This document shows positions 5,567 through 34,310 of a stretch of 64,000 nt of DNA, piece by piece. Position numbers and translations under genes: made by a program. Under the pieces are notes generated by a model that did not search any database, was not told where the DNA came from, and saw only the letters and a list, made by a program, of their open reading frames with translations. Every line of letters starts with the position of its first letter. Position 1 is the first letter of the stretch. Origin of the DNA: Pseudorhodoplanes sinuspersici (GTDB lineage: Bacteria > Pseudomonadota > Alphaproteobacteria > Rhizobiales > Xanthobacteraceae); assembly GCF_002119765.1 (NCBI RefSeq), contig NZ_CP021112.1, forward strand, positions 5,907,616 through 5,971,615, written 5' to 3'.

Positions 5567-5585
5567 GGCTGTCTCCAGTCGTTGA

Positions 5586-6383: not shown

Positions 6384-6390
6384 GGCGATT

Positions 6391-7248: not shown

Positions 7249-7259
7249 CGCATCCGCCT

Positions 7260-17155: not shown

Positions 17156-18211
17156 TCATGCAAGCCGTTTAGCCTCAAAATAGGGAAGAATACCCGTCTC
17201 CGGCGCGCAATTGATGTATTCGAAATGCTGCCCTTCGGCCGGGAGCACGAAGACTTCGTGCCAGGTGCGGAGTTGGTTGAGCTTGCCATATTTTTTGTAG
17301 CGCGCGATCGCGGCCGAAAAGATCGCATGGTGCGACGGATGCCCTTCGGCCCATGTCTCCAAATGCGATAGCGACAGGAAATAGCCGAGCGCGTGTGCCT
17401 CGGGCTCGACATTCCCGGCTGCGTCGCAGGTCTGCTGATAGCGCAGCGAGCAGCACCCGGTCGCAGTGGCATTGTTGCGAAGATAGTCCATGCCCTTTTC
17501 CAGCGGCGAGCGCAGGTTGGTCATGAAATCCTCGTGCTGCTCGTCATCGCAAGCGCCCCAATAGGCAGCGGAGCGAATGACTGCGAAATTATGCGGCGTA
17601 TGGATTCTCCAGCGCGCGCCTTTCGTCGCGCGCACAACCGCCTCGCCGATCCCTTCAGTCTTCGGCGTCTCCAGCAGATCGGCGGCGGCCATCGGAATCC
17701 GGTCACGCATCGCGCCGTAATAGCCGCAGTAAGGCGTCGGATAGATTCCGACCTCGGCCGCCCTGCTCAGGCCCCCCGGATAATCCTGCCAATACAGCGT
17801 TTCCTGGCGGTCCAGCGGCACCGTCAGGCATTCGCGGAAATAACCCCACGGCTCGTTCAGCCGCGCCGGGTCGTTCCACCAGGTGACATTCGCGGGTGCG
17901 TTAGACCACGCCTCGTATTGTTCCGGGTCGATCCAGTACATGGCGACGATGTGAGTGGTCAGCCCCTGATCGTCGACGAAGCGCGCGTGGTCATGCACGA
18001 TGGGCGCGTCGGACAACGCAAGAGCCTCGGCAACCCAGCGGAAGAACGACGGCGCAGTTACGCCATCGTCGTTCTCGCTTTGAACGCCAAAGAAGGAGAC
18101 ATAGAACCGGTCATAGCGGTTCGGCAGCGCCACCGACCAACGCTGCACCGCCGGCACGAAGTCTTTCGGCTTGCGCAGCGGGTGAACCCGTTCAAACACG
18201 GATACGGCCAT
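17156..18211 (-). CDS. oxd: Aldoxime dehydratase (haem-containing, OxdA/OxdB type)
   Basis: 351 residues, the usual length of phenylacetaldoxime/alkylaldoxime dehydratases, which convert R-CH=NOH to the nitrile R-CN using a ferrous haem b. The C-terminal third matches the family pattern: SHLETWAEGHPSHHAIF, with a candidate axial haem histidine around residue 294, then LRTWHEVFVLP, with the candidate catalytic histidine at 318, and QHFEYINCAPETGIL. AGGAGA precedes the ATG. It is the last gene of the Liv-type transporter operon and a nitrilase lies about 6 kb away, which supports an aldoxime to nitrile to acid pathway. Exact residue roles are inferred from recollection of characterised members. 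Confidence 0.82.
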   Translation of the reverse strand: MAVSVFERVHPLRKPKDFVPAVQRWSVALPNRYDRFYVSFFGVQSENDDGVTAPSFFRWVAEALALSDAPIVHDHARFVDDQGLTTHIVAMYWIDPEQYEAWSNAPANVTWWNDPARLNEPWGYFRECLTVPLDRQETLYWQDYPGGLSRAAEVGIYPTPYCGYYGAMRDRIPMAAADLLETPKTEGIGEAVVRATKGARWRIHTPHNFAVIRSAAYWGACDDEQHEDFMTNLRSPLEKGMDYLRNNATATGCCSLRYQQTCDAAGNVEPEAHALGYFLSLSHLETWAEGHPSHHAIFSAAIARYKKYGKLNQLRTWHEVFVLPAEGQHFEYINCAPETGILPYFEAKRLA

Positions 18212-18243
18212 GAATATTTTCTCCTGAGCCCCGAACTCCGGTG

Positions 18244-18969
18244 CTAATGCACGCCGAAATAGGCCTTGTGCAATTCGGGATCGTTCTTCAGCGTTTCCGT
18301 CGGTCCGGCCGTCACCACACGGCCCTGCGACAGCAGATAGCCATAGTCGGCAACGTCAAGAGTCTGGCGGACATTTTGCTCGACCAGCAGGATGGTAACG
18401 CCACTCTCCTTCAGCCGCCGCACGATCTTGAACACTTCGCCGACAAAGAGCGGCGATAGGCCGAGCGACGGCTCGTCGAAAATGACAAATTCGGGATCAG
18501 TCATCAGGCCGCGCGCGATTGAGAGCATCGAGCGCTCGCCGCCTGACAGTGTTCCCGCAAGCTGATTACGGCGCTCTTCAAGCCGGGGAAAGATATTGAA
18601 CAACTCATCGAGGCGCTTGCGCTCGCGCGCGGCATCACGCACCAGCAAGCCGCCGACCCGCAGATTTTCCAGCACCGTCATGCGCGGGAAGACGCGATTG
18701 CCTTCTGGAATGGTAGCAATCCCCAAGGCAGCGATGCGATGTGTCGGCATATCGGAGATTACGTCGCTCCCGAACCGGACAGTTCCGCTGCTGACGCGAC
18801 AAAGTCCAAGTATGGAACGAATAAGCGTCGACTTGCCAGCCCCATTGGCTCCGAGAATACACGTCACACTGCCCGCCTTGGCGGACACATTCATCTCAGT
18901 CAGCACATCCGCCCGGTCATAGCCGGCCGACAGATTGACCACGTCGAGATCGCGCGTCGCGGTCATCAT
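18244..18969 (-). CDS. Branched-chain-type ABC transporter ATPase (LivF-like)
   Basis: 241 residues. Walker A is GANGAGKSTL, the signature is LSGGERSML, Walker B is FVIFDEPSLGLSP and the switch region is LLVEQNVRQ. The SLGLSP and EQN sequences mark the LivF subgroup. The start ATG overlaps the LivG-like stop by four bases (ATGA). It is part of a five-gene HAAT-type importer followed by aldoxime dehydratase, so the imported compound is probably an aldoxime, a nitrile or a precursor rather than leucine. Confidence 0.9.
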   Translation of the reverse strand: MMTATRDLDVVNLSAGYDRADVLTEMNVSAKAGSVTCILGANGAGKSTLIRSILGLCRVSSGTVRFGSDVISDMPTHRIAALGIATIPEGNRVFPRMTVLENLRVGGLLVRDAARERKRLDELFNIFPRLEERRNQLAGTLSGGERSMLSIARGLMTDPEFVIFDEPSLGLSPLFVGEVFKIVRRLKESGVTILLVEQNVRQTLDVADYGYLLSQGRVVTAGPTETLKNDPELHKAYFGVH

Positions 18970-19745
18970 GCCGCCTGCCCCAGATAGGCCGCCTGCACCT
19001 TGGGATCGGCGATCAGCCCGTCGAAATCGCCCTCATAGATCTTGCGGCCGAAATTCAGCACCACGCAGCGGTCGCTGACGCGGCGGATGACATTCATCTC
19101 GTGTTCAACCAGCACGATGGCGAGGTCCGACATCAGGTCACGCATCGCAACCACGTCGTCCATCAGCTTGTAGGTTTCTTCGTGCGTCATCCCGGCGGAG
19201 GGTTCATCCAGGAGCAAGAGACGCGGCTCGCCGATCAGTGCGCGGCAGATTTCGATACGCCGGCGGTCGATCATGGTAAAGGTGCCGACCGGCTCGAACA
19301 GACGGTTCGCGATCGCCGGATTGAAGCGCCGCACCAGCGCGCCAACACGGTCGATCATACTGTCGAGCTCGCGCCGCCAGGCCCCGCGACGTAAGATATT
19401 CGCTGCAAAGCCGAGGTTCAGCTTACGCAGCGTGCCGACCATGACGTTGTCAAACACGGTCTGGTCCAGCATCAGGCGCGAGCGCTGGAAGGTGCGCGCG
19501 ATCCCGGCCGCCGCGATCTTCTGCGGCGGCTTGGCAAAAAGGTCGACGCCATCGAAGGAAACCGCGCCGGCCGACGGCTGGTAAAGCCCGGTCAGCACGT
19601 TGAAGAAGGTGGTTTTACCGGACCCGTTGGGTCCGACGAGGCCGACGATCTCGTCGCGCGCGATCGCGAAATCGAGCGCATCGAGCGCGGTCAGGCCGCC
19701 GAAGGTCATCGTCAGATCGTTGCAGACCAGAAGATCGCAGCTCAT
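18966..19745 (-). CDS. Branched-chain-type ABC transporter ATPase (LivG-like)
   Basis: About 259 residues starting at the ATG at 19745 (MSCDLLVCNDLTMTFGG), which overlaps the LivM-like stop as ATGA. The longer open frame upstream is only the shadow of LivM. Walker A is GPNGSGKTTFFN, Walker B is LLLLDEPSAGMT, and the C-terminal region has LVEHEMNVIRRVSDRCVVLNFG, the LivG hallmark. It works as a heterodimer with the LivF-like ATPase. Confidence 0.9.
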   Translation of the reverse strand: MSCDLLVCNDLTMTFGGLTALDALDFAIARDEIVGLVGPNGSGKTTFFNVLTGLYQPSAGAVSFDGVDLFAKPPQKIAAAGIARTFQRSRLMLDQTVFDNVMVGTLRKLNLGFAANILRRGAWRRELDSMIDRVGALVRRFNPAIANRLFEPVGTFTMIDRRRIEICRALIGEPRLLLLDEPSAGMTHEETYKLMDDVVAMRDLMSDLAIVLVEHEMNVIRRVSDRCVVLNFGRKIYEGDFDGLIADPKVQAAYLGQAA

Positions 19746-20944
19746 GCCCGCTCTCCCCGCGACAAGACGCGTGACAGCATGCGCAGGGACCGCGGCATGA
19801 TGCCGGAGGGCCGAAAACGCAGGATCAGCATCACCAGGATCGCGAAAATCAGTAGCCGGTATTCCTGAATCGCCTGCAGCTTCTCCGGTAGCACCAGGAT
19901 GACGACGGCTGCACCGATAGTGCCCCAGAGATTGCCGAGTCCTCCGAGCACGATGATCGAGAGCAGGATCAGGGAATCGCCGAGGCCTGCGCCGTTGGGA
20001 TTGATGAAGCCGTTCATCATGCCATAGGCGCCACCGGCTACGCCGATCAGCATGTTGCCGACGAGAAAGGCGAAGGCCTTCCAATAGGCGATGCTGAGAC
20101 CGAAGACGGACGCCGCAACTTCATCTGCGCGCACCGCATCGAGACTGATGCCTATCCATGAATTCTCGATCAAGCGGACGAGGACGAAGGCGCCGGCGAA
20201 GAGCAGGATTCCGAACACCGCATAAGGCACGTAAAAAGACAGATCGATCGGACCGATCTCCCGGACATTGTTGAACTGCAGACCGAAGAGATCGAGACCG
20301 GGCACTTTCAGCCCCTGTGGACCGCCGAGCAGATCGTTCACTTCAAGGAACGTCCTGATCAGTAGGCCGAATGCAATCGTGACCAGCGCCGCATAGTGTC
20401 CGCGCGTACGCAACACCGGCAGCAGCACGCAAAGGCCGAGCACCCCGGCGACGATCCCGCAGCCAGCGAGCACAAGGAGATGTGGCAGAGCCGTATGATT
20501 GCCGAGGATCGCAGCCGTGTAAGAGCCGATGGCGAAGAACGCGGCACCCGCGAAATTCACGACACCGGCGAAGGCAAGCTGCAGATTGAGCCCGATGCAG
20601 GCGGCCGCATAGAGCGCGACCGTTGTCATCATCAGCAACGTGTAATGGTCGTCACGGAAAAGCACGACCAGCGCCAGCGCACCGATAAGGGCGACCCCGT
20701 TACCGAAGCCGGCATGGCGACGGCACGTCGCGGTCAAGTCGCGTCCGATAGCGGTGCCGTCAACGACGCCGATTAGCGCCACGAAACTCACAAGCACGGC
20801 CACAACGCTAATCTGGTTTTCGGCATGCAACAGAAACGCGAGCGCCGCGAAGACGAGCCCGACGACGCCAACGATAACAAGACGGGGGAAGCGCCGCACC
20901 AAAGGCGGCCAGGCAGTTTCGGTGGAGGGCACGAGCAAGGTCAC
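19742..20944 (-). CDS. Branched-chain-type ABC transporter permease (LivM-like)
   Basis: 400 residues with about ten hydrophobic segments. The LivM pattern is clear: ALYAAACIGLNLQLAFAGVVNFAGAAFFAIGSYTAA (a stretch around residues 110-145) and the late loop GGLGNLWGTIGAAVVI. It has an extended N-terminus of about 100 residues with extra membrane helices, a known variant. It overlaps LivG by four bases and follows LivH by two. Confidence 0.88.
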   Translation of the reverse strand: MTLLVPSTETAWPPLVRRFPRLVIVGVVGLVFAALAFLLHAENQISVVAVLVSFVALIGVVDGTAIGRDLTATCRRHAGFGNGVALIGALALVVLFRDDHYTLLMMTTVALYAAACIGLNLQLAFAGVVNFAGAAFFAIGSYTAAILGNHTALPHLLVLAGCGIVAGVLGLCVLLPVLRTRGHYAALVTIAFGLLIRTFLEVNDLLGGPQGLKVPGLDLFGLQFNNVREIGPIDLSFYVPYAVFGILLFAGAFVLVRLIENSWIGISLDAVRADEVAASVFGLSIAYWKAFAFLVGNMLIGVAGGAYGMMNGFINPNGAGLGDSLILLSIIVLGGLGNLWGTIGAAVVILVLPEKLQAIQEYRLLIFAILVMLILRFRPSGIMPRSLRMLSRVLSRGERA

Positions 20945-20946
20945 CT

Positions 20947-21867
20947 TTACACCCGCTCGCTGCTCTTTTCCGGAATAAGCCCGGTCGGGAACAGGCCAAT
21001 CAGCACAATCACCACCGCAAAAGCGACCACGTCCTTGTAGGCGCTCGAGAAAGGCAGCGCGATGGTTGCCAGCGTCTGCGCACCGGCAAACAGAAAGCCG
21101 CCAAGGATCGCGCCGAGCAGATTGCCAAGACCGCCCACCACCGCCGCGGCGAATCCGATCACGCCAAGCAGAACGCCCATGTTGAAGTTGATCTCGCGAT
21201 AATAGAGACCGAGCATCAGGCCGGCGAAGGCCGCGAGCGCGGAGCCGATCGCGAAGGTACCCAGCACCACGCGCTGGAAATCGATGCCGGATAATTGCGC
21301 GACATCTGGTTCCTGCGCCACTGCGCGGATGGCGAGACCGAGCCGCGTATGCGTCACAACAAAATGCGTGATGCCGACCAGCGCCAACCCGCAGGCGAGA
21401 ATGATCACGCTGTCGATGCCGATGCTGAACGAGCCGAACTGGATATTGCCGGCTGGCAGCAAAGCCGGGAACGGTTTGGGATTGCCGCCATTCGGCACAC
21501 CGAGGCGGATGATCTCGCGCAGCACCGTGCCCGCCATCAGGGTTGCGAGCAGCACATTGACGGCCGGCGCATGCCGAAGCGGCAGTACGAGCGTACGGCC
21601 AACGATCACGCCGGCGATCGCGCCAGCGGCGAGACCAGCCAGCAGGCCCACAAGGAGAATGACAATCGCCGGCAGTCCGGAGTTGACGCCGACAAGAGTG
21701 ACCGCACCTAGACTTGCAAAGGCGCCGGTGGCCAGCACATCGCCGTGCGAGAACTTGATCACATCGAGCACGCCGAAGAACAGCGAAAAGCCAACCGCTA
21801 TCATCGCGTAGATCACACCAAGCATAAGCCCATTGAAGATGTGCTGGGCAAGAAGGCCGAAATCCAT
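20947..21867 (-). CDS. Branched-chain-type ABC transporter permease (LivH-like)
   Basis: 306 residues. A perfect AAGGAGG site precedes the ATG. Motifs of LivH: GLMLGVIYAMIAVGFSLFFGVLDVIKFSHGD at the N-terminus and VVGGLGNLLGAILGGFLFA near the C-terminus. It forms the membrane channel with the LivM-like protein and lies 90 bases downstream of the binding-protein gene. Confidence 0.9.
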   Translation of the reverse strand: MDFGLLAQHIFNGLMLGVIYAMIAVGFSLFFGVLDVIKFSHGDVLATGAFASLGAVTLVGVNSGLPAIVILLVGLLAGLAAGAIAGVIVGRTLVLPLRHAPAVNVLLATLMAGTVLREIIRLGVPNGGNPKPFPALLPAGNIQFGSFSIGIDSVIILACGLALVGITHFVVTHTRLGLAIRAVAQEPDVAQLSGIDFQRVVLGTFAIGSALAAFAGLMLGLYYREINFNMGVLLGVIGFAAAVVGGLGNLLGAILGGFLFAGAQTLATIALPFSSAYKDVVAFAVVIVLIGLFPTGLIPEKSSERV

Positions 21868-21957
21868 CTCAGCCTCCTTGCTGCGAGATCACGAGATGCA
21901 GGTCTGCAAGAGTCATCGTCGCTCCATTCCACCCACGACGATAAGCTTGTATCGACC

Positions 21958-23136
21958 TCATTTGGCAAGGCCGGTGAGCGACTTCTTGCCGCCGGCATAT
22001 TCGCTGTCCGGCCAATAGGTCCATTTGCGGTTCTGCACGACATAGACATACGGCGTGACGATGTTCTGGCGATGATCGTCGAAGTTGATTGTGCCGACAA
22101 GACCAGCATAACCTTTGGTTTTGTTGAGCGCGTCCTGCACCTTCTTGCGGTCCGGACCGACTTTTTCGATGGCGTCCATGATCAGATTGGCGGCGGTGTA
22201 GGCGAAGGGCCCATAGGCGTCAGGATCTTCGCGGAAACCGGCCTTCGCATAAGCATCGAGGAAGGTGCGGCCCTGCGCATATTTCTCGATCGGAGCGCCG
22301 TTATGGAACGACACCGTTCCTTCCGCCGAGGCGCCGGCGCCTTCGATGAAGCCCGCATTGAGAATGCCGGACACCGCGATGAACTGGGCATTCACGCCGA
22401 CGCGATCCATCTGCGCGCGGATGCGCACACCGCCAGGAGTGAGACCTCCCCAGTAGATCACTTCCGGCCTCAGCTCCTTGATCTTGGTCAGCTCGGCCGT
22501 GAAATCCTGCTGGTCCGGTGCGACAGGGAATGTTGCGGCGATTTCTCCGCCCGATTCGGACAGGAACTTGCTGAAGTATTTGTTCTGACCTTTGCCGTAG
22601 TCGGTCGTGTCGTGCAGGATCGCGACGCGCTTGTATTTATTGTCGGCGAGGAATTTCGCGGCGAGCTTGCCTTCATCGACCATGGTTCCGTTGACGCGAT
22701 GAATTTCCGCGTAGTTGTTGCCATAGGTGATCTCCGGCAGCACGGCGCCCCACACCACCACCGGAAGCTGGAAGCGGTGATAGGTGTCGACCGTCGCGAT
22801 GCCGACCGTCGAGCAATAATGCGTCACGCCAGCTATGATGGACTTGTCCGACGCCGCCTTGGTCGCGACCTGGATGCCGACATTGGGCTTGCACTCGTCG
22901 TCGAGGGTGACGAGTTCGTAGGAATATTTCGCTTTCGGATCGGCGTTGCGCAATTGCACGGCGAGCAGCGCAGAGTTGCGCCCGCCGAGGCCAGGCGCGG
23001 AACTGCCGCCCGTGAGCGGGCCGATGAAGGCGATTTTCACGGTATCCTTTGCGGCTGCATCGCCGGCCGCCCACAACCCGACCGAGATCGCCACGGTGGC
23101 TGCAAATACGGATGCCACAAGACGTCGATTCATCAT
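21958..23136 (-). CDS. ABC transporter substrate-binding protein (LivJ/Leu-Ile-Val type)
   Basis: About 392 residues from the first of two ATGs at 23136, preceded by AGAGGGACAGGGACA. The signal peptide ends near AAGDAAAKDT. The mature part is a type-I periplasmic binding protein: VKIAFIGPLTGGSSAPGLGGRNSA, VAILHDTTDYGKGQ and DAYGPFAYTAANLIMDAI. It is the first gene of the operon that ends in aldoxime dehydratase. The ligand may be an aldoxime, nitrile or amino-acid-derived compound (inference). Confidence 0.88.
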   Translation of the reverse strand: MMNRRLVASVFAATVAISVGLWAAGDAAAKDTVKIAFIGPLTGGSSAPGLGGRNSALLAVQLRNADPKAKYSYELVTLDDECKPNVGIQVATKAASDKSIIAGVTHYCSTVGIATVDTYHRFQLPVVVWGAVLPEITYGNNYAEIHRVNGTMVDEGKLAAKFLADNKYKRVAILHDTTDYGKGQNKYFSKFLSESGGEIAATFPVAPDQQDFTAELTKIKELRPEVIYWGGLTPGGVRIRAQMDRVGVNAQFIAVSGILNAGFIEGAGASAEGTVSFHNGAPIEKYAQGRTFLDAYAKAGFREDPDAYGPFAYTAANLIMDAIEKVGPDRKKVQDALNKTKGYAGLVGTINFDDHRQNIVTPYVYVVQNRKWTYWPDSEYAGGKKSLTGLAK

Positions 23137-23287
23137 TGTCCCTGTCCCTCTGCTAAATCGCTGACCCCGGCGGCCGGAATGAAATCTGGCCCGGATTGGA
23201 AAACAGGCCAGCGGGCGAGAGCAATGGGAAAAGCGCGCAAGGCTCTGTGCGATTCTGGGGCAACTGAATGCGCTGCACAAAGATACG

Positions 23288-24193
23288 TCAGAGAATGCCT
23301 GCTTGCATATCACTCTGGATTTGCCTGGTCAGGAACGCGATGACCGTTCGAATGCGCGGCGAGAACTGAAGGTCCTGATGCACGCTGGTCCAGATTTCCC
23401 GCGTGGTGAAAGCCTTGTCGTGCAGGATGGGAACTAACGGCGTTGTCTCGTGGATGGAGAACCGCGGCAGCAGCACAATCCCTAAACCACCGATCGCAGC
23501 ATTGCGCTGCGCGATCATGCTGGAGGAATGCATCACCACACGCGGGTTCTGGATTACCTCGTCGAGCCAGCGAACGGTGTCCACTTGGATCAGATCTTCG
23601 ACATAGGTGATGAAGTCATGATCCGCGAGATCAGCGAGATCGGCGGGGCAACCTTTGCGATCGAGATAGCTTTGCGAGGCATAAAGCCCGAGACGGAAGC
23701 TGCCGATTTTCTCCGACACCAAACCCTGTCCCGGCGGCTTGAAGAAGCTGATGAACAAGTCTGCCTCGCGCCGGTTCACGTAGATCATTTGTGGTGAGGT
23801 CACGAGTTCCAGCGTGATATGCGGCGCCGCATCCCGCAGAAGAATTGCGCGCGGCGCAAGATAGAGCGACGCGATGCCCTCCATCGTTGCTAGCCGCACG
23901 GTGCCGGCGGCCTCGGGCGCGGTTTCGTTCACTTCGGATCGCACTTTCAGCATCGCGCTCTCGACTGCCTCTGCATGAGGCAGCAGCCGCTTGCCGAGAT
24001 CGTTCAGTTTGAAGCCAGAGCGTGTTCGCTCGAACACACCGGAGCCCAGCGCCTGCTCAAGCTGGGAAATGCGGCGGCTGACCGTCGAGTGATCGATGCG
24101 CAGCCGGCGCGATGTCTGGGACAAATTCCCGGTCCGGGCCACATCCAAAAAAACGCGCAGGTCGTCCCAATCGAGCAGATCAATAGAGCGCAT
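23288..24193 (-). CDS. LysR-family transcriptional regulator
   Basis: 301 residues from the ATG at 24193 (MRSIDLLDWDDLRVFL); the frame upstream lacks family similarity. The helix-turn-helix is within residues 8-65 (GNLSQTSRRLRIDHSTVSRR), followed by the effector domain. The N-terminal form resembles the AaeR/CrgA-like LysR branch. It is divergent from the nitrilase 115 bases away and upstream of the transporter operon in the same direction, so it probably controls both. Confidence 0.9.
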   Translation of the reverse strand: MRSIDLLDWDDLRVFLDVARTGNLSQTSRRLRIDHSTVSRRISQLEQALGSGVFERTRSGFKLNDLGKRLLPHAEAVESAMLKVRSEVNETAPEAAGTVRLATMEGIASLYLAPRAILLRDAAPHITLELVTSPQMIYVNRREADLFISFFKPPGQGLVSEKIGSFRLGLYASQSYLDRKGCPADLADLADHDFITYVEDLIQVDTVRWLDEVIQNPRVVMHSSSMIAQRNAAIGGLGIVLLPRFSIHETTPLVPILHDKAFTTREIWTSVHQDLQFSPRIRTVIAFLTRQIQSDMQAGIL

Positions 24194-24308
24194 GAAACGA
24201 TTTCCGGCCTCCGGTCGAGATTTGCAAGCCACCTTGCGAGAATACGCGATCCCGCCCGCCAAGCCTCCATGATACCCAAAAGCTGCGGCAATTCGGAAGG
24301 GTGCGTTC

Positions 24309-25391
24309 ATGGACAATCTGCCCCGGTTCAAGGCAGCGGCGGTGCATGCGGCACCGGTCTTTCTCGACAAGAACGGCACGACGGAAAAGGCCATCTCCAT
24401 CATACGCGAGGCCGCGGCTGCGGGCGCCGCTCTGGTCGCCTTTCCGGAAACATTTCTGCCGGCCTTTCCGATATGGGCGGCGCTTTGGGCACCGATCGAC
24501 AATCACGATTTGTTCGCCCGAATGGCGGCCGCATCTGTGCTGGTCGACGGTCTCGAAATCCAGCGCATTCGCGATGAGGCCAGACGGCAAGGTGTCTTCG
24601 TCTCGCTGGGATTCAGCGAAAGGTCGCCCGCCAGCGTCGGTGCCCTCTGGAATTCCAATCTGCTGATTGGCGACGATGGCTCTGTCCTGAACCACCATCG
24701 CAAGATCGTGCCAACCTTCTACGAAAAGCTGATCTGGGCCTCAGGCGACGGTGCCGGCCTGCGGGTCAGCGCAACGCGCATCGGACGCATCGGTTGTCTG
24801 ATCTGCGGCGAGAACACCAATCCGCTTGCACGTTATGCTCTGATGGCGGAGGGTGAACAATTGCACATTTCGTCTTGGCCGCCGATTTGGCCGACGCGGC
24901 GCCCCAAAGGAGGTGGCAATTTCAATAATTTGGCCGCGAACCGTCTGCGCGCCGGAGCACATTCCTTCGAGGCCAAGGCATTTGGGCTGGTCACCGCCGG
25001 ATTTTTAGACGCGGCCGCACGCGATTTTCTAGTTTCGCGGGACTCGTCGATCGCCGAGGTTCTCGATGAAACACCACGCGCCGCCTCCTATTTCATCGAC
25101 CCCACCGGTGAGGCCACCAGCGACGAATTGCGTGACGCCGAAGGCATCGTTTACGCCGACATCGATCTGAACCGATGCGTTGAGCCGAAACAATTTCACG
25201 ACGTCGTCGGCTACTATAACCGCTTTGACATTTTCGATGTGCGGGTCCGTCGCACGCGCCTCAATCCCGCAACCTTTGTCGAAGATATTTCTGGATTGGA
25301 AGATCCGCATGCGCCAGCATTGAATGGTGGCACACCTGAACTACTGCAGAGGCGTGCTAAATCATCTGCCATCGAGCTAGGAGGACTTTAG
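24309..25391 (+). CDS. Nitrilase (carbon-nitrogen hydrolase family)
   Basis: 360 residues. The catalytic triad is visible: E47 in VAFPETFLP, K132 in NHHRKIVPTFYEK and C166 in LICGENTNPLARY. CGENTNP and the following GEQLHISSWPP segment are typical of true nitrilases that turn R-CN into R-COOH and ammonia, as opposed to amidases. Combined with the aldoxime dehydratase encoded in the same module, it would complete conversion of an aldoxime to a carboxylic acid. It is divergent from its probable LysR regulator. Confidence 0.9.
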   Translation: MDNLPRFKAAAVHAAPVFLDKNGTTEKAISIIREAAAAGAALVAFPETFLPAFPIWAALWAPIDNHDLFARMAAASVLVDGLEIQRIRDEARRQGVFVSLGFSERSPASVGALWNSNLLIGDDGSVLNHHRKIVPTFYEKLIWASGDGAGLRVSATRIGRIGCLICGENTNPLARYALMAEGEQLHISSWPPIWPTRRPKGGGNFNNLAANRLRAGAHSFEAKAFGLVTAGFLDAAARDFLVSRDSSIAEVLDETPRAASYFIDPTGEATSDELRDAEGIVYADIDLNRCVEPKQFHDVVGYYNRFDIFDVRVRRTRLNPATFVEDISGLEDPHAPALNGGTPELLQRRAKSSAIELGGL

Positions 25392-26045: not shown

Positions 26046-26912
26046 TTATTGCATCGCGATCTCCATTTCGAGTGGCTTCATGTCGCTGTAGGCTGCAGGT
26101 GCGGGAGGTCGATATCCAAGCGATGAGTGTGGGCGTTTGTGATTGTAGTGTTGTCGCCATTGCTCGATAACGATCCGAGCCTCCTTCAGGCTGTAAAAGA
26201 TTTCGCCGTTGAGCAATTCGTCACGCAGCTTGCCATTGAAGCTTTCGCAATAACCGTTTTCCCAAGGGCTGCCGGGCGCAATGAACAGAGTGTTGGCACC
26301 AAGCTGAGCGAGCCACGCCCTGACAACCTTGGCGGTCATCTCGGGACCATTATCGGACCGAATGTGAGTGAGGACACCCCTTTTCAGCATCACATCCGCG
26401 AAGGTCTCGATGACGCCGAAGCTCGTGATCCGTCGGGCCACCCGGATAGCAAGGCACTCACGTGTGTATTCGTCGATCAACGTCAGCAGGCGGAGCGATC
26501 GACCATCATGGGTTTGCGCTGAGACAAAATCATAGCTCCAAACATGCCGTGGTCGTTCCGGTCGCAACCGGACACACGATCCATCGTTGAGCCATAAGCG
26601 CCCCCTCGGACGCTGCTTCCTGGGGACTTTGAGGCCCTCCCGGCGCCAGATCCGCTGCACCCGATCTTTCCCCACTTGCCAGCCGCTGATCTGCAGCAGC
26701 GCCGTGATCCGACGATAGCCGTAACGGCCATATTCGGATGCAAGAGTGACAATGGCCCGGGTGAGCGCATCCTCGTCGGCACGAACCGTGGGAATATAAC
26801 GTTGCGTTCCCCGCGGCTGGCTGACGATCCGGCAGGCATGACGTTCCGAGAGCTGATACTTGCGTCGGATCGCTTCGACTGCCTGCCGGCGCCGGTCAGG
26901 CGCTACAAGTTT
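26046..26912 (-). CDS. IS3-family transposase orfB (DDE integrase core)
   Basis: The open frame from about 26912 reads [19 protein letters not shown], then the HTH_21 region, then the rve integrase core: [18 protein letters not shown] with the first aspartate, [10 protein letters not shown] with the second, and [21 protein letters not shown] with the glutamate. The C-terminus is [15 protein letters not shown], also typical. No ATG begins this frame, as expected for a product made by frameshifting from orfA. The first in-frame start codon is a GTG at 26675. Confidence 0.8.
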
Positions 26913-28358: not shown

Positions 28359-28417
28359 TTTGACGGCTGCCGGATCCCATCCCTTGGTGAACACGTGATT
28401 GCAGGAGACGTGAAGTG

Positions 28418-29389
28418 ATGCAGAACAAGTTCTTCGTAGCCGTCATGGGGGCGGTGGCCGCTCTGGCCCTGCTCCAACAGCCCGCGGCCGCAGCAGACGT
28501 GAACCTGATCACGGATTTTGGCTATAACGGCCGCCATTCCTATTTCTATGTCGCCCTCGAAAAAGGCTATTACAAAGACGAGGGGCTGAATGTCACCATT
28601 CTGCGCGGGCAGGGCTCCGGCGACGCGATCAAGAAAGTCGCTGCCGGCGCAGCAACGTTCGGCTTCGCAGATGCGGGCTCACTGGTTCTCGCCCGCGGCA
28701 ATGACGGCGTGCCGGTCAAGCTCGTATCTGTTGTCTATGTTCAGCCGCCGCAGGCGCTGTTTGTGCTGGAAAGCAGCAACATCAAGACGCCGAAGGACCT
28801 CGAAGGCAAAACACTGGCCGAGACCGCGGCCGGTGCGATCCGTCTCCTCTTCCCGGCCTACGCGAAAGCGGCCGGTATCGACGAGAGCAAGGTGAAGTGG
28901 GTCGCTGCAGAAAGCTCCGCGCTGCCCTCGATCCTCGCATCGAAGCGTGCCGATGCCATCGGCCAGTTCACGGTCGGCGCGCCACTGCTTGCTGCTGCGA
29001 CAGCGCCAGAGGGCGTCCGGGCCCTCGCCTACAAGGATGCCGGCCTGAGCTATTATGGCAACGGTCTCATCGCAAGCGAGAAGACCATTGCGGAAGACCC
29101 GAAGATGGTGCGCGGCTTCGTTCGCGCAACCCTCAAGGGCATGAAGGATGCCTTCGCAAAGCCTGAGGAAGCCGCAACGATCATGAACAAGCATCAAAAG
29201 CAGCTTTCCGTTCAGGTCATCGAAGGCGAAACGCGCCTCGTCGAGCAGCTCGCGACGACCAAGGGCTATCCGATGGGCAAGATCGATCCCGCCCGGATCG
29301 ACGAAACCGTCAAGGTCATCGAGACCTATTTCAAGCTGAACAATCCGGTGAAGCCGGCCGACCTGTTCGCTGACGGATTTGTTGAATGA
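28418..29389 (+). CDS. ABC transporter substrate-binding protein (NMT1/THI5-like)
   Basis: About 323 residues from the ATG at 28418, with GGAG upstream; a GTG one codon earlier is also possible. The signal peptide (VMGAVAALALLQQPAAAADV) is followed by FGYNGRHSYFYVALEKGYYKDEG, the NMT1/THI5 opening, and RGFVRATLKGMKDAF later. It heads a three-gene importer operon. The ligand is unknown but should be shared with the downstream monooxygenase module. Confidence 0.87.
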   Translation: MQNKFFVAVMGAVAALALLQQPAAAADVNLITDFGYNGRHSYFYVALEKGYYKDEGLNVTILRGQGSGDAIKKVAAGAATFGFADAGSLVLARGNDGVPVKLVSVVYVQPPQALFVLESSNIKTPKDLEGKTLAETAAGAIRLLFPAYAKAAGIDESKVKWVAAESSALPSILASKRADAIGQFTVGAPLLAAATAPEGVRALAYKDAGLSYYGNGLIASEKTIAEDPKMVRGFVRATLKGMKDAFAKPEEAATIMNKHQKQLSVQVIEGETRLVEQLATTKGYPMGKIDPARIDETVKVIETYFKLNNPVKPADLFADGFVE

Positions 29390-30228
29390 CATTGCAAGGC
29401 GCCTTGGCCGGGGGCGACCTCGCTCACACGAAACAGCAGACGATAACGGGCGACGTTCCCGTCATCTCGCTGAAGGATGTCACGAAGGTTTTCACCGACA
29501 ATCAGGGCAGGACGATCGAAGCGCTGGCGCCGCTGGATCTTGTGATCGAAAGTGGCACCTTTGTTTCTGTCGTCGGTCCGTCGGGATGTGGAAAATCCAC
29601 GCTGCTCAGACTAATTGCCGGGCTCGATGCACCGACAAGCGGAACCATGTTTCGCTATGGTGCTCCGCTGGACAGCCCGTCGCACGAAGTCGGCATCATC
29701 TTTCAGGAACACGTTCTGTTTCCCTGGCTGACGGTGCTTCAGAACGTCATGCTGCCGGCGGATATTCTCAGCCTTCCAAAAAGTGGCGCCGAGAAGCGGG
29801 CATGGCATCTCCTGGAACTCACCGACTTGAAGGATTTTGCACATCACAAGCCACAGGCCTTGTCCGGCGGCATGAAGCAGCGTGCCGCCTTCTGCCGTGC
29901 GATGCTCGCCAATCCGCGTTTCCTGCTGCTCGACGAGCCATTCGGCGCACTCGATGCGCTGACACGGGAAGAGTTGTCGCTCGAGCTTTCACGGTTATGG
30001 GATGAAGTCGGACGCACAGCCTTCCTGATCACCCATGATATCGAGGAAGCGATCCTGCTCGGGGATCGCATTCTGGTCATGTCGCAGCGGCCCGGCCGCA
30101 TCGTCGCGGATATTCCCGTCAAGCTGCCGCGGCCACGAACCATGCGCACATCGCAAGACCCGCTCTTTCAGGACATCAAACAGAAGGTGCGCCAGATCAT
30201 CTTCGGCCGCCAAGAAGACGCGTCATGA
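29386..30228 (+). CDS. ABC transporter ATP-binding protein (SsuB/TauB type)
   Basis: 280 residues. Walker A GPSGCGKSTLL, signature LSGGMKQR, Walker B LLLDEPFGALDAL, switch LITHDIEEAI. The ATG overlaps the binding-protein stop (ATGA). It energises the NitT-type importer formed with its neighbours. Confidence 0.92.
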   Translation: MTLQGALAGGDLAHTKQQTITGDVPVISLKDVTKVFTDNQGRTIEALAPLDLVIESGTFVSVVGPSGCGKSTLLRLIAGLDAPTSGTMFRYGAPLDSPSHEVGIIFQEHVLFPWLTVLQNVMLPADILSLPKSGAEKRAWHLLELTDLKDFAHHKPQALSGGMKQRAAFCRAMLANPRFLLLDEPFGALDALTREELSLELSRLWDEVGRTAFLITHDIEEAILLGDRILVMSQRPGRIVADIPVKLPRPRTMRTSQDPLFQDIKQKVRQIIFGRQEDAS

Positions 30229-30977
30229 ACATTGCAGCGGTAGCAAGCCGTGCCGTCACTCCGCTGGTCTACATTGTCGCGCTGGTGGTGTGGGAGATTC
30301 TTGCGCGTAGCCTGAAGATTCCATTGTGGATGTTGCCGGCGCCAACGATGATCGCCGCGGCGGCGATCGAATGGGCGCCGGAGCTTCTTTCGAATTCGAT
30401 CGTCACCACCCGCGAAACCGTTCTCGGCTTCCTGCTTGCACTGGTGATCTCGTTGCCGCTGGCATGTGCGATTGCATTCAGCACCTGGGCGCGGAAGATC
30501 ATCTATCCAGCCATCCTCGGTCTGCAATCGATACCGAAAGTCGCACTCGCCCCACTTGTCACGCTGTGGCTCGGATTCACCGAATGGCCAAAGATCGTGA
30601 TCGTGGTGCTGGTGTGTTTCTTTCCGATCCTTGTCAATGTCGTGGCCGGCTTCGAGAGCGTACCGAAGTCGATGGTCGACCTCATGCGCTCGCTGAATGC
30701 GCCCCAGCATTTGGTGCTGTGGCGCTTGCGCGTTCCGGCGGCCCTGCCGGCCTTCTTCACCGGCTGCAAGATCGCCATCACGTTCGCCGTGATCGGCGCA
30801 GTGATCGCCGAGTTCGTCGCCGCACAGGAAGGGCTGGGTTATCTCATTCTGATGTCAACGTCGCAGTCACAGACGCCTCTGGCCTTCGCCGCGATTATCG
30901 CGCTGACGGCGATCAGCATTCTTCTTTTTTACATACTCGAATTCATCGAGAAGAAGACCATCACCTGGACGCCGTAA
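30225..30977 (+). CDS. ABC transporter permease (NitT/TauT type)
   Basis: 250 residues with six membrane segments and the ATPase-docking loop LRVPAALPAFFTGCKI. It overlaps the ATPase stop by four bases. The stop codon lies in the loop of a GC-rich hairpin shared with the convergent gene. Confidence 0.9.
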   Translation: MNIAAVASRAVTPLVYIVALVVWEILARSLKIPLWMLPAPTMIAAAAIEWAPELLSNSIVTTRETVLGFLLALVISLPLACAIAFSTWARKIIYPAILGLQSIPKVALAPLVTLWLGFTEWPKIVIVVLVCFFPILVNVVAGFESVPKSMVDLMRSLNAPQHLVLWRLRVPAALPAFFTGCKIAITFAVIGAVIAEFVAAQEGLGYLILMSTSQSQTPLAFAAIIALTAISILLFYILEFIEKKTITWTP

Positions 30978-30985
30978 ACGGCGTC
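30968..30985. terminator. Hairpin overlapping the permease stop codon
   Basis: GACGCCG-TAAA-CGGCGTC is a perfect 7-bp stem whose loop contains the TAA stop of the permease. It ends one base before the stop codon of the convergent gene. A run of T is lacking on both sides, so it may act as a weak bidirectional terminator or mRNA end stabiliser. Confidence 0.5.
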
Positions 30986-31930
30986 TCAGGCCAGCGCGAT
31001 ACTGTCCCAGATCGGCCTGAACTGCGTCGCCACGGCATCTTCGTACTTTACGGGTTCGGTCAGAAGACCGAACCCGGCCGCAAAACGGCTAAGGCCTGCA
31101 AACGTCTTCTCAGAAATATGCGGCGTATAATATGATAGATCACGCGCCACAACATCGGCGATCATGGCCGCTTCCGCAGGCGGAAACAGCGCCTCGCCCA
31201 CTTTGGTTGCGAGCGACACATCCGACCGGAGCGCGGCCTCTGCGGCAGTGATAGCCCGCACACCCGCGGCGACCAGATCCGGATCGGCAGCAAGCGCGGC
31301 CTCGCTCGTGACGAGCGCAGGAAATGTGTAATCGAACGCGAAATCAGGGCCGAGTCCACGGCGAACATCGAGAACCACTGCCCCGACGCCGGAGCGGATG
31401 GCCACCTCAGCGCCAAGGCCATTCGCCCAAAATCCATCCATTGCTCCGGCCTCGAGCGCCTTCGCCGCGGCAATGCCGAACGAGACACCGGGCTCCTTCG
31501 CGCCGGGGACTTCTACGATGCGGATGTCATCGCGCTCAAGGACGAAGCCAGAATCAAGCAGCAATTGGCGGAACGAAAGTTCGACAAAGGGCGCCGCACC
31601 AATGCGGCGGCCTTTCAGTGCATCGAGATCTCCCGGCGCGATGCCAAGCTTTCTGTTCATGATCAGCAGCCAATAAGTCCCCTGTCCGAGAGAGGCTATG
31701 AGTCTGGCGCCAGATCCGTTCGGGAAAGCGGCTAGGACCGAATGAGCCGGCGCGGCAACGAAATCAACCTCGCGATGTCGCAACGCCTCGAATGTGCGAT
31801 TGCTCGGATAGATCAACTCAATCGTGGCATCGACGCCCTCGCGATCGAAAAATCCCAGCTCCACGGCGGCGATCGCCGGGAAATAGGAGTTCGAAACAAG
31901 ATCGGGAACGCCGAGCTTCACCGTTTTCAT
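30986..31930 (-). CDS. NMT1/THI5-like domain protein without signal peptide
   Basis: 314 residues with GAGG before the ATG. It resembles NitT-type substrate-binding proteins (VKLGVPDLVSNSYFPAIAAVELGFFDREG and REVDFVAAPAHSVLAAF) but begins MKTVKLG with no signal peptide or lipobox. It is therefore either cytoplasmic or delivered otherwise. Cytoplasmic NMT1-like proteins include decarboxylases and enzymes as well as sensors, so an enzymatic role in the pathway is possible. It is convergent with the ABC operon and divergent from the monooxygenase gene. Confidence 0.75.
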   Translation of the reverse strand: MKTVKLGVPDLVSNSYFPAIAAVELGFFDREGVDATIELIYPSNRTFEALRHREVDFVAAPAHSVLAAFPNGSGARLIASLGQGTYWLLIMNRKLGIAPGDLDALKGRRIGAAPFVELSFRQLLLDSGFVLERDDIRIVEVPGAKEPGVSFGIAAAKALEAGAMDGFWANGLGAEVAIRSGVGAVVLDVRRGLGPDFAFDYTFPALVTSEAALAADPDLVAAGVRAITAAEAALRSDVSLATKVGEALFPPAEAAMIADVVARDLSYYTPHISEKTFAGLSRFAAGFGLLTEPVKYEDAVATQFRPIWDSIALA

Positions 31931-32161
31931 TCAGACGCCTCGCATATGTGCTTAAGGCCGGATTCCAAGCCTATGGCCTATGCAGCCAATACTTCTCTAG
32001 AGAACGAGATCCACCGATATCCGAGGCAATCGGCGATCCCGGCCGAGCTGTGACCAATCCAGCCGACCCTTTTCATACCATTGAATTTTATGCCATTTCT
32101 GCCTGAATAACGACCGCGTTGCCTGGATTTTCGGCGCGCCCCAGGCTGCCTCAGCGGCTAT

Positions 32162-32181
32162 ATTGTTCGATATAGAACAAT
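32162..32181. promoter_or_regulatory. Operator palindrome, copy 2 (monooxygenase promoter)
   Basis: ATTGTTCGATATAGAACAAT is a perfect inverted repeat (ATTGTTC, six-base spacer, GAACAAT) 27 bases before the monooxygenase ATG. It shares TTGTTCGATA and GAAC with 28341-28358. It overlaps a possible -10 element (TATATT at 32159-32164), consistent with repression. Confidence 0.68.
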
Positions 32182-32207
32182 TGGCTTTGGCGGGTGCATC
32201 TGTGGGG

Positions 32208-33338
32208 ATGGACAAGAGCGCGCGAATTGCGATCGTCGGTGGCGGCCTCGCCGGCCTGGCGCTGGCCGGGCTGCTGTACAAGCAAGGCTATCGGATCACC
32301 GTCTTCGAACAGACTCCCGAATTCCATCGGATTGGCGCCGGCATCATTCTCGGCGCGAGCATTGCCAAGGTCATCCAGCGGATCGGTATTCTCGAGCCCT
32401 ATATTGCGGCCGGCATGAAGCCGGATGCCTTCGTCAGCCGAAAATGGGACACCGGGGAGACCCTCAACGAACTCCTTTTCGACGCCGAGGCAGAAGCGCG
32501 GTTCGGCGGACCTTTCATCAATATTCATCGCGCCGATCTTCATGACGTTCTCCGATCTGCCATCCCCGACGAAGCCATTCGTTTCGACCACATGCTTGTT
32601 GGTACAGAGCCAGCCGGAAGCGCCGTGCGTCTCACCTTCAGCAATGGCCTGACGGAAGACGCCGACATTGTTGTCGGTGCGGACGGTATACACTCGCGTC
32701 TGCGGAATGCCATTTTCGGAAAAAGACCGCTGCGCTATGTCGGCAGCGTCGCTTATCGCGCAGTTTTTTCCACCGCCCGCGTCGCCGGATTGTCGATGCG
32801 CGATTGCACCAAATGGTGGGGCCCCGATCGGCACGCCCTGTCCTATTATGTCACCGGCCGCCGCGACGAAATGTATATCATGGGAGCCGTGCCAGACAAA
32901 AGCTGGAACGCGACCAGCGAACCGGTCATCCAGAACCACGATCGCTTCCTCGAAGCCTTCAAGGATTTTCACCCCGAACTCACGGCATTGATTACGGCCG
33001 CCGAAGAGGTTCAGGCATTGCCGATCTGCGATCTCGAACGCAACGACAGATGGAGCGAAGGTCAGGCCGTCTTGATGGGCGACGCCTGCCACGCCGTCCG
33101 GCCGTACATGGCTGCCGGCGGATCGATGGCCATCGAGGATGCTGCCATCCTGTCAGAAGCCATCAGCACACACGACACGCCGGCCAAGGCATTCGCGGCC
33201 TACGAGAAGATCCGCATCCCGCGTGTGGGAAAAGTGCAGCGCATTTCCGAAGAGAATTCCTGGCTGAAGTTGCCGACCGACACCGGCTGGTTCTTTGGCT
33301 ATGATCCCTTCACCGAAGATCTCAAGCAGGCCGCCTGA
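32208..33338 (+). CDS. FAD-dependent monooxygenase (6-hydroxynicotinate 3-monooxygenase-like)
   Basis: About 376 residues from the ATG at 32208; a TTG at 32163 lies within the operator and is unlikely. It is a class A flavoprotein hydroxylase: GxGxxG in IAIVGGGLAGLALA at residues 8-21, the DG motif in VVGADGIHSRLR, and GDACHAVRPYMAAGG at about 291. Segments TKWWGPDRHALSYYVTGRRDE and the end WFFGYDPF resemble NicC (6-hydroxynicotinate 3-monooxygenase), which decarboxylates and hydroxylates a pyridine acid. Substrate identity is inferred only. It is followed by a deacetylase and an amidase. Confidence 0.8.
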   Translation: MDKSARIAIVGGGLAGLALAGLLYKQGYRITVFEQTPEFHRIGAGIILGASIAKVIQRIGILEPYIAAGMKPDAFVSRKWDTGETLNELLFDAEAEARFGGPFINIHRADLHDVLRSAIPDEAIRFDHMLVGTEPAGSAVRLTFSNGLTEDADIVVGADGIHSRLRNAIFGKRPLRYVGSVAYRAVFSTARVAGLSMRDCTKWWGPDRHALSYYVTGRRDEMYIMGAVPDKSWNATSEPVIQNHDRFLEAFKDFHPELTALITAAEEVQALPICDLERNDRWSEGQAVLMGDACHAVRPYMAAGGSMAIEDAAILSEAISTHDTPAKAFAAYEKIRIPRVGKVQRISEENSWLKLPTDTGWFFGYDPFTEDLKQAA

Positions 33339-33377
33339 GGCTTGCCCGACCGTCGCCCCTTTCTCAACAGCGCTTCC

Positions 33378-34310
33378 ATGTCCGATCATCAGCAAGACCT
33401 CATCCCCAGCCGCGATCTTGTCGGTTATGGCGAGCATCTACCCGATCCGAAATGGCCGGGCAGCGCCGTCATCGCGGTCAATTTCAATCTGAACTACGAA
33501 GGCGGCGGGGAAGCGACGCTCGCGAATGGCGATGCCGTTTCCGAAGGCATGCTAAACGATATCGGCGTCGATACCCGACATGGTGTCCGCGATCCGCTGG
33601 TGGAGTCTGTGTTCGAATATGGAAGCCGCCGCGGCGTCTGGCGCATTCTCGATATCTTCTCGAAATACGATGTGCCGCTGAGCGTCTTGGCCGTGGCGCG
33701 CGCCGTTGAACAGAACCCGGATATCGCGCAGGCCTTTATCAAGCGCGGGCACGAAATCGTCAGCCACGGCTATCGCTGGATCGACTATTGCCAGGTGCCC
33801 GCAGAAGTCGAGCGCGAACATATCAAACGCACCGTGGAGATCCTGACGCGACTTGCCGGAGAACGTCCGCTCGGATGGATGACGGGACGCCCCGGCCCCA
33901 ATACGCGCCGTCTCATCATTGAGGAAGGCGGTTTCCTCTATGACAGGGACTCCTTGTCGGATGAATTGCCTTACTGGGTGGAAGGTCCCAAAGGCCCGCA
34001 TCTTGTGATCCCCTATTCCTATGAGACCAACGACAATCGCTTCAACGGCAATGCGGGCTTCGCCACCGCCGATCAGTTCTTCCACTATATTCGCGATGCC
34101 TTCGATCTTCTGGTCGAGGAAGGTCGCGCTGGTTCACCGAAGCTGCTGTCGATTGGATTGCACGACCGTCTGATCGGACGCCCTGCCCGGGCCATGGGCC
34201 TCATCAAACTTCTGGAGCACATGCGAAGCATCGAAGGTGTGTGGTTCTGCAGAGGAATCGACATCGCCCATCATTGGCGCAAACATTTCCCACCAAAGAG
34301 CGCAATATGA
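33378..34310 (+). CDS. Polysaccharide deacetylase-family hydrolase (PuuE allantoinase-like)
   Basis: About 310 residues from the ATG at 33378. It has the NodB/CE4 fold in the PuuE variant: VIAVNFNLNYEGGGE near the start, SHGYRWIDYCQV, GWMTGRPGPNTRRL and SIGLHDRLIGRPAR. PuuE-type members hydrolyse cyclic or acyl amides without being true polysaccharide deacetylases. Together with the amidase downstream (overlap ATGA) it probably cleaves C-N bonds in a ring-opened product. Confidence 0.83.
   Translation: MSDHQQDLIPSRDLVGYGEHLPDPKWPGSAVIAVNFNLNYEGGGEATLANGDAVSEGMLNDIGVDTRHGVRDPLVESVFEYGSRRGVWRILDIFSKYDVPLSVLAVARAVEQNPDIAQAFIKRGHEIVSHGYRWIDYCQVPAEVEREHIKRTVEILTRLAGERPLGWMTGRPGPNTRRLIIEEGGFLYDRDSLSDELPYWVEGPKGPHLVIPYSYETNDNRFNGNAGFATADQFFHYIRDAFDLLVEEGRAGSPKLLSIGLHDRLIGRPARAMGLIKLLEHMRSIEGVWFCRGIDIAHHWRKHFPPKSAI

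What the first reader, a model, noticed from the sequence alone, without database searches (positions are those of the whole stretch)
17156..25391. Aldoxime to nitrile to acid catabolic module with its own Liv-type importer
Seen: a Liv-type ABC operon ends in a 351-residue protein with the C-terminal pattern of haem aldoxime dehydratases; a divergent LysR and a nitrilase with E47-K132-C166 complete the block. Known: aldoxime dehydratases make nitriles, nitrilases make acids. Known aldoxime loci usually pair Oxd with nitrilase or with nitrile hydratase plus amidase; a dedicated five-gene HAAT importer co-transcribed with Oxd is, as far as I know, not described. Inference: the importer takes up an aldoxime or a precursor such as a plant-derived aldoxime.
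Basis: partly seen in the sequence, partly recalled or inferred. Interest (0 to 1): 0.75.

Follow-up and report, generated by a model that had tools for sequence, protein, structure and literature searches.

The report
Aldoxime-to-acid pathway with own importer
One gene block carries an ABC importer, a haem aldoxime dehydratase, a nitrilase and a regulator that are predicted to take up a small, likely negatively charged aldoxime and turn it via a nitrile into an acid, and other bacteria keep enzymes of this kind beside several unrelated importers.

Summary
In detail: window 17156-25391 holds an intact haem aldoxime dehydratase (Oxd) with the catalytic residues, 32 nt behind a complete five-gene HAAT (Liv-type) importer, plus LysR and a divergent nitrilase. 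All 13 intact members of this Oxd's clade that I collected (window included) keep Oxd, nitrilase and all five importer genes, in at least four orders; 12 of 13 keep Oxd and importer in one run. Unrelated transporters (other HAAT sets, a NitT/TauT-like one, an SSF symporter) sit beside other Oxds, or beside the same nitrilase where no Oxd is near. A wider Oxd clade has Arg where OxdRE has substrate-cavity Met29 (29 of 29 rows; 0 of 36 others), which predicts an anionic aldoxime that needs an importer. Neighbours in relatives (malonyl-CoA synthase and decarboxylase, a decarboxylase remnant between oxd and nitrilase in one) hint at cyanoacetate to malonate. Against ligand specificity: the binding protein shares most inspected pocket residues with sisters from loci without Oxd. 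New variant of a known kind.

The parts
17156..18211 (-). oxd, haem aldoxime dehydratase (351 aa); H294 axial, S214 and H318 catalytic, R24 at a substrate-cavity position
   Evidence: PF13816 4.7e-76; 7f2y/3w08/3a15 alignments; residue mapping
18244..18969 (-). livF-type ABC ATPase
   Evidence: ABC_tran 1.5e-27; best NCBIfam LivF, below its cut-off
18966..19745 (-). livG-type ABC ATPase (259 aa; 4-nt overlaps with livM and livF)
   Evidence: ABC_tran 6.5e-25, best NCBIfam LivG, below cut-off; start set
19742..20944 (-). livM-type permease
   Evidence: BPD_transp_2 4.5e-24
20947..21867 (-). livH-type permease
   Evidence: BPD_transp_2 4.3e-44
21958..23133 (-). periplasmic solute-binding protein of the importer; several LivJ/LivK-type ligand residues replaced
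   Evidence: Peripla_BP_6 9.3e-41; pocket mapping
23288..24193 (-). LysR-type regulator, same strand as liv-oxd, divergent from the nitrilase
   Evidence: HTH_1 3.5e-16, LysR_substrate 3.6e-30; start ATG 24193
24194..24308 (.). 115-bp lysR/nit intergenic region, presumed regulatory (inference)
   Evidence: coordinates
24309..25391 (+). nitrilase, E47-K132-E139-C166
   Evidence: CN_hydrolase 2.2e-37; 6zby 7.7e-50, 3wuy 4.6e-49; residues invariant in 13 of 13

Best explanation
Window 17156-25391 encodes a five-gene HAAT (Liv-type) ABC importer, a haem aldoxime dehydratase, a nitrilase and a LysR regulator, which together are predicted to import a small, likely anionic aldoxime and convert it via a nitrile to a carboxylic acid and ammonia. 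Predicted order: the periplasmic protein captures the substrate; HMGF import it; Oxd binds the aldoxime on haem (H294 axial; S214 and H318 catalytic; R24 likely pairing with a substrate carboxylate) and releases the nitrile; the nitrilase (C166) hydrolyses it; LysR likely senses a pathway compound and controls both arms. Shown: gene content, intact catalytic residues, conserved linkage, repeated pairing with different transporters. Inferred: substrate, direction of transport, co-transcription, regulation.
For: Catalytic residues intact. All 13 intact clade members keep Oxd, nitrilase and SBP-HMGF in at least four gene orders, incl. Corticibacter populi (Comamonadaceae); 12 of 13 keep a LysR of 43% identity or more and 12 of 13 keep livF-oxd in one run with 17-169 nt gaps. 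G1093 has a broken oxd (2 in-frame stops), a nitrilase without stops and no such binding protein in the genome at E<=1e-100; G1081 has the binding protein (76%) beside permease genes that look damaged (livH match in two frames, livM match partial; no livG or livF seen) and no Oxd. In the top-120 lists of two protein searches 14 of 51 Oxd clusters with a longest contig of 10 kb or more share that exact length with a binding-protein cluster; shifted controls average 0.03. Other Oxd lineages have their own HAAT sets (LivG tree: B loci one separate clade, L009 and L084 another) or a NitT/TauT-like one (all parts scanned in L076; binding protein in L072, ATPase in L074). 33 of 42 loci of the same nitrilase without Oxd nearby have HAAT N1 (13), HAAT N2 (14) or an SSF symporter (6). 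Arg at the OxdRE Met29 position: 29 of 29 rows of clades A, B and Bn, 0 of 36 others.
Against: At 7 of 11 inspected pocket sites the binding protein has the same letter as all 18 relatives from loci without Oxd (at an eighth, T102, both sets have V or I), and some of these lie beside sarcosine-oxidase, M19 or M20 peptidase genes, so the pocket is not Oxd-specific. The binding proteins of Oxd-linked loci are not one clade: L037 groups with two Oxd-free loci (p-AU 0.0009). HAAT permeases are common (76 matches in this genome; further HAAT sets lie near in L003, L004, L060, L061 and L066), so mere nearness (10 rows labelled within 10 kb) is weak. Importer runs without the Arg exist (L009, L084: Ala), and Arg without a seen importer in L069, L071 (contig ends near) and L087. 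The Arg clade is one event on the tree. No model, docking or biochemical data.
Confidence: 0.72

Rival explanations
1. The importer brings in the nitrile (or another direct substrate of the nitrilase), and Oxd is an accessory that widens the diet.
For: The orthologous nitrilase (57-77%) has a transporter of another lineage beside it in 33 of 42 loci without Oxd nearby; LysR-nit pairs with a LysR closer to the window's (56-65%) than in most clade members occur there.
Against: In this clade oxd is in one run with livF in 12 of 13, whereas nit changes place and is on the other strand from oxd in the window, L037 and L068. G1093 kept a nitrilase without stops but lost both an intact Oxd and the importer (one case).
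Confidence: 0.15
2. The importer keeps an older ligand of its subfamily (for example an N-methylated or other modified small acid) and Oxd plus nitrilase act on something that enters otherwise; linkage is co-regulation of nitrogen scavenging.
For: Most inspected pocket residues shared with sisters in loci without Oxd; sisters beside sarcosine-oxidase-like and peptidase genes.
Against: Oxd linkage kept in 13 of 13 through rearrangements, and other importer lineages join Oxd or nit; the site of LBP W18 is T, P or A in 13 of 13 Oxd-linked proteins and N or H in 14 of 18 others.
Confidence: 0.1
3. Chance neighbours: a generic branched-chain amino acid importer next to oxd.
For: 76 BPD_transp_2 permease matches in this 5.97-Mb genome.
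Against: Conservation over 13 loci incl. a Comamonadaceae genome; of 32 rows in the main classic Oxd clade 1 has an importer run; LivJ/LivK ligand residues are replaced.
Confidence: 0.03

Closest known systems
Aldoxime-nitrile pathway clusters nit-oxd of Bacillus sp. OxB-1 and Bradyrhizobium sp. LTSPM299
   Same: Oxd with a nitrilase gene beside it
   Different: Those have an AraC-type NitR and the review names no transporter (PMC8955678, passages); here LysR and a five-gene importer, and an Oxd clade with Arg instead of a small or hydrophobic residue at the Met29 position. This genome also carries an importer-less nit-oxd pair at G000:753560-754528.
OxdRE / OxdA (Rhodococcus, Pseudomonas; PDB 3a15, 3w08) and OxdB (7f2y)
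   Same: Same haem dehydratase family; axial and catalytic His conserved
   Different: Met29 to Arg24 and Phe306 to Ala301; M29G and F306A widen substrate scope in OxdRE (PMC11568032, section 5). Ala at the second site is also found in 17 of 37 other rows. Score below the NCBIfam OxdA cut-off (227 vs 600 bits)
LivJ/LivK-HMGF branched-chain amino acid importer (HAAT family)
   Same: Same five-component architecture
   Different: Binding-protein residues W18, T102, Y202, E226 of E. coli LBP become P/T/A, V/I, L, S; below all Liv cut-offs
Nit6803-type and other solved nitrilases (3wuy, 6zby)
   Same: Family and Glu-Lys-Glu-Cys residues
   Different: Cys-Gly-Glu-Asn at the nucleophile in 13 of 13; below the Nit6803 cut-off (208 vs 502.6 bits)

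Membership tests
Haem aldoxime dehydratase (PF13816) | Dehydratase_hem domain over its length | tested here: met
   256.6 bits, cut-off 25
Haem aldoxime dehydratase (PF13816) | Proximal His299, distal Ser219 and His320 (OxdRE numbering) | tested here: met
   H294, S214, H318 by sequence alignment; no structural alignment possible, prediction off
Haem aldoxime dehydratase (PF13816) | Haem binding and aldoxime dehydration | not testable with these tools
   needs protein
OxdA aliphatic aldoxime dehydratase equivalog (NF050090) | Score over 600 bits | tested here: not met
   227.1 bits
Nitrilase (CN_hydrolase) | Glu-Lys-Cys (and second Glu, recalled) catalytic residues | tested here: met
   E47, K132, E139, C166 in 13 of 13
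Nit6803 family (TIGR04048) | Score over 502.6 bits | tested here: not met
   208.2 bits
HAAT (Liv-type) ABC importer | SBP, two permeases, two ATPases in one run | tested here: met
Branched-chain amino acid importer LivJ/K-HMGF | Ligand residues of the amino acid site (Thr102, Tyr202; Glu226 recalled) | tested here: not met
   V/I, L, S in 13 of 13; Ser79 and Tyr150 kept
Known aldoxime-nitrile pathway cluster | oxd in one cluster with nit or nitrile hydratase | tested here: met
   oxd and nit starts 6.1 kb apart with SBP-HMGF and LysR between
Known aldoxime-nitrile pathway cluster | AraC-type NitR regulator (nit-oxd type) | tested here: not met
   LysR instead
Known aldoxime-nitrile pathway cluster | Co-transcription and induction by aldoxime | not testable with these tools
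   only spacing known

The most novel reading that the evidence does not exclude
This is the founding example of importer-coupled aldoxime catabolism for charged C3 aldoximes: a dedicated importer brings in malonic semialdehyde oxime (3-hydroxyiminopropanoate, such as legume isoxazolinones or related nitro toxins could release), an Arg24-type Oxd makes cyanoacetate, and the nitrilase makes malonate, which enters central metabolism via malonyl-CoA. It would give a physiological substrate for a whole Oxd clade.
Probability: 0.22. Interest if true: 0.78.

Novelty: new variant of a known kind. Interest (0 to 1): 0.6.

Why it matters
Thousands of putative oxd genes are known (PMC11568032, section 5), but natural substrates are largely unclear. 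A clade marked by importer linkage plus a pocket arginine would tell which Oxds likely act on charged, non-permeable aldoximes, and names small compounds to test (3-hydroxyiminopropanoate, cyanoacetate). If true, it would also give biocatalysis an Oxd type for functionalised acids and suggest that some bacteria actively take up aldoximes rather than wait for them to diffuse in.

Tried and rejected
Considered and rejected: a plain branched-chain amino acid importer (ligand residues replaced); using the changed pocket as proof of an aldoxime ligand (sisters without Oxd share most of it); one single origin of the importer-Oxd pairing (SBP tree for L037; LivG tree); nearness within 10 kb as evidence (HAAT genes too common). 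A valine-type route (isobutyraldoxime) for the semialdehyde dehydrogenase neighbours was thought of and not tested. Literature on leucine-binding residues gave one useful passage; the search for nitro-toxin genes gave context only (listing seen). PMC8275659 held none of the residue names asked. A search for the Bradyrhizobium nitrilases blr3397 and bll6402 could not tell which, if either, is the ortholog here.

Rows dropped and parts not looked at: the Oxd alignment holds 66 rows and the tree 65; L010 (split match) was dropped from the tree, and L008, L011 (29-residue match), L058 and L067 (partial or broken) were in neither. Below G854:C71 in the hit list there are 73 near full-length, mostly classic hits, of which I fetched 17; the other 56 were not looked at for importers. 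All higher hits of that list were fetched. Of 48 nitrilase hits of 57% or more outside the Oxd clade's own loci I looked at 42 (6 not fetched); hits under 57% were not surveyed. One of the 42 (L128) has an in-frame stop in the nitrilase. Of the 9 counted without a transporter, L151, L155 and L163 are short stretches (3.9 to 9.2 kb) and L120 has a DctA-like symporter nearby. Contexts of the metagenome proteins could not be seen. Long branches make several placements unsure.
Full report
What is there. The window (last 64 kb of a single-contig 5.97-Mb genome) holds, on the minus strand, lysR 24193-23288, a periplasmic binding protein 23133-21958, livH, livM, livG, livF and oxd 18211-17156, and on the plus strand a nitrilase 24309-25391. 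livM/livG and livG/livF overlap by 4 nt, livH and livM are 2 nt apart, livF and oxd 32 nt. Oxd matches PF13816 at 4.7e-76 and three solved aldoxime dehydratases. Mapped on OxdRE, H294 is the haem-proximal His299, S214 is Ser219 and H318 is His320 (roles from passages of PMC4835899). The nitrilase keeps E47, K132, E139 and C166 in 13 of 13 clade members (that E139 is catalytic is recalled).

Conserved linkage. Stretches of up to 20 kb were fetched (only 17 of the 73 lower, mostly classic hits) and scanned with the window's proteins. The clade of the window's Oxd (51-63% identity to it; SH-aLRT 99) has 13 intact members including the window. All 13 carry the nitrilase (59-72%), binding protein and H, M, G, F; 12 of 13 carry a LysR of 43% or more; L060 does not. 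Gene order differs (nit-SBP-HMGF-oxd; SBP-HMGF-oxd-nit; oxd-lysR-nit-SBP-HMGF; the window's order), so linkage has outlived rearrangement. In 12 of 13 oxd is in one same-strand run with the importer, 17 to 169 nt from livF; in L037 it is on the other strand, beyond LysR. Two decayed cases agree: G1093 has an oxd with two in-frame stops, a nitrilase without stops and no such binding protein in its genome at E<=1e-100; G1081 has the binding protein (76%) beside permease genes that look damaged, and no Oxd.

Pairing is recurrent. In a second Oxd clade (33-38% identity, 13 rows), L070, L073, L075 and L077 have HMGF-nit-oxd runs, with a binding protein scanned before them in L070; six more have the orthologous Liv set within 10 kb, five of them with nit, and in L083 a second binding protein lies directly before oxd. 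Their LivG proteins form a clade apart from the window's. L009 and L084 have a third HAAT set beside Oxds from two places of the tree. L076 has a NitT/TauT-like system; L072 and L074 share its layout, with one part scanned in each. The nitrilase also occurs where no Oxd is near: of 42 such loci (57-77% identity; 42 of 48 hits outside the Oxd clade's loci) 13 have a HAAT set N1, 14 a HAAT set N2, 6 an SSF symporter and 9 none. The scanned binding proteins of N1 and N2 are nearest to UrtA and the scanned symporter to ActP/MctC, all below cut-off. In contrast, in the main classic Oxd clade of the tree an importer run occurs in 1 of 32 rows. So transporter swapping around one enzyme pair is the pattern; that is what one expects if the transporter serves the pathway's substrate.

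Why an importer. Phenylacetaldoxime-like substrates should cross membranes (general knowledge). The position of OxdRE Met29, which lines the cavity for the substrate's methyl group (PMC8456930, passages), and whose change M29G, like F306A, widens substrate scope (PMC11568032, section 5), is Arg in 29 of 29 rows of clades A, B and Bn and in 0 of 36 other rows with a letter there (Ser, Ala, Met, Gly, Leu). The Phe306 site is Ala in those 29, but also in 17 of the 37 others; the Leu145 site is Leu or Ile in those 29. An Arg in the cavity predicts a carboxylate on the substrate, which would make the aldoxime charged and in need of transport. This is one event on the tree, not many; L009 and L084 pair importer and Oxd with Ala at that site, and for L069, L071 and L087 no importer was seen beside an Arg-type Oxd.

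The binding protein. Against E. coli leucine-binding protein, W18, T102, Y202 and E226 are P/T/A, V/I, L and S in the 13 Oxd-linked proteins, while S79 and Y150 stay (LivJ contacts from a passage of PMC6983066; the role of E226 is recalled). So an alpha-amino acid is unlikely. But 18 relatives from loci without Oxd, mostly 55-62% identical, have the same letters at the sites of S79, A101, A103, Y150, Y202, E226 and Y276 and V or I at T102; some lie beside sarcosine-oxidase-like, M19 or M20 peptidase genes, and L037's protein groups with two of them (p-AU 0.0009). The pocket therefore does not prove an aldoxime ligand. Among inspected sites only W18 separates most of the two sets: T, P or A in 13 of 13, N or H in 14 of 18.

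Which aldoxime. Hints converge on a C3 acid. An orthologous nitrilase without Oxd is followed on the same strand by malonyl-CoA decarboxylase (PF05292 7e-107) and malonyl-CoA synthase (NF005702, 830 bits, cut-off 558) in L121, and by the same pair in L141 and L142; all three genomes are of one genus. L120 keeps a C-terminal piece of the synthase. In L060, inside the Oxd clade, a remnant of malonyl-CoA decarboxylase (53% over 57 residues, 9e-12; profile 2.9e-9) lies between oxd and nit. L091, a classic Oxd locus, has relatives of both malonate genes (54% and 46%) on the other strand beside nit-oxd. Semialdehyde dehydrogenases of the CoA-acylating kind (TIGR01722 in the two scanned, L037 and L060; 58-69% alike to L060's in the others) lie near Oxd or the binding protein in L037, L059, L060, L067, L098, L099 and L100, with a nitronate-monooxygenase-like gene (Pfam NMO in L067; NCBIfam's best is FabK, below cut-off) in L060, L067 and L098. 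Malonyl-CoA decarboxylase exists in 11 of 12 genomes of the clade that I searched, this one included; G097 lacks it and Corticibacter was not searched. Reading: malonic semialdehyde oxime to cyanoacetate to malonate. Against: no malonate gene of these two kinds was matched near the block in the window or in the other clade loci apart from the L060 remnant (the window's AMP-binding gene is only 28% like the synthase), and the operon evidence comes from one genus. The isoxazolinone link is recalled chemistry; that Oxds turn benzisoxazoles and dihydroisoxazoles into nitriles is in PMC11568032 (section 5). I give this 0.22.

Known or new. PMC8955678 (outline, passages, section 8) describes nit-oxd and nitrile hydratase clusters and holds no occurrence of transporter or permease; PMC11568032 (passages, section 5) none of transporter or importer. 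A search for aldoxime dehydratase with branched-chain amino acid and transporter gave 0 papers. Judged by titles and abstract starts, none of the papers listed (20 of 106; 12 of 12; 2 of 2; 1 of 1; 10 of 44) is on importers in Oxd loci. The library is open-access only. Filed as a new variant of a known kind: the enzymes are known; the importer coupling and the Arg clade are not described in what I could search.

Noticed in passing
L058 9877-10037 (G000:C1 about 3975877-3976037): A remnant elsewhere in the same genome: 124 bases 92% identical to window 17227-17350 (oxd) next to 47 bases 87% identical to 18841-18886 (livF); no more of the block was matched there. Suggests a decayed second copy.
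   Followed up: partly
L057 (G000:C1:753560-754528): The same genome has a second, classic-type Oxd (31%) with its own nitrilase beside it and no importer run.
   Followed up: partly
L072, L074, L076: Oxds next to a NitT/TauT-like importer have Asn at the position of the catalytic His320 in 3 of 3, with Arg at the Met29 site; chemistry may differ.
   Followed up: partly
L060, L067, L098, L154: A recurring block of a nitronate-monooxygenase-like gene and a semialdehyde dehydrogenase with LysR genes between them, and transporters, GST or a PPOX-type flavoprotein near in several; looks like catabolism of a nitro acid such as 3-nitropropionate.
   Followed up: partly
L059 9540-18432: A divergent Oxd relative (29%) with Glu and Val in place of the catalytic Ser and His, near the same semialdehyde dehydrogenase, PPOX and GST genes.
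   Followed up: no
L112-L115: Sister importers lie beside sarcosine-oxidase-alpha-like and M19 dipeptidase genes (scanned in L112) and, in L112, an AraC-type regulator with a DJ-1/PfpI domain.
   Followed up: no
window 3-8261 and 28415-39737: The window is rich in other uptake and catabolic genes: a Rieske oxygenase, several NMT1-type binding proteins, an amidohydrolase, an acetamidase/formamidase-like gene, a DctM transporter.
   Followed up: no
window 26046-26675: An ORF just beyond the nitrilase looks like an IS3-type transposase (family recalled, not searched).
   Followed up: no
L122 9376-11920: A 46% nitrilase relative lies beside a protoglobin-chemoreceptor fusion.
   Followed up: no
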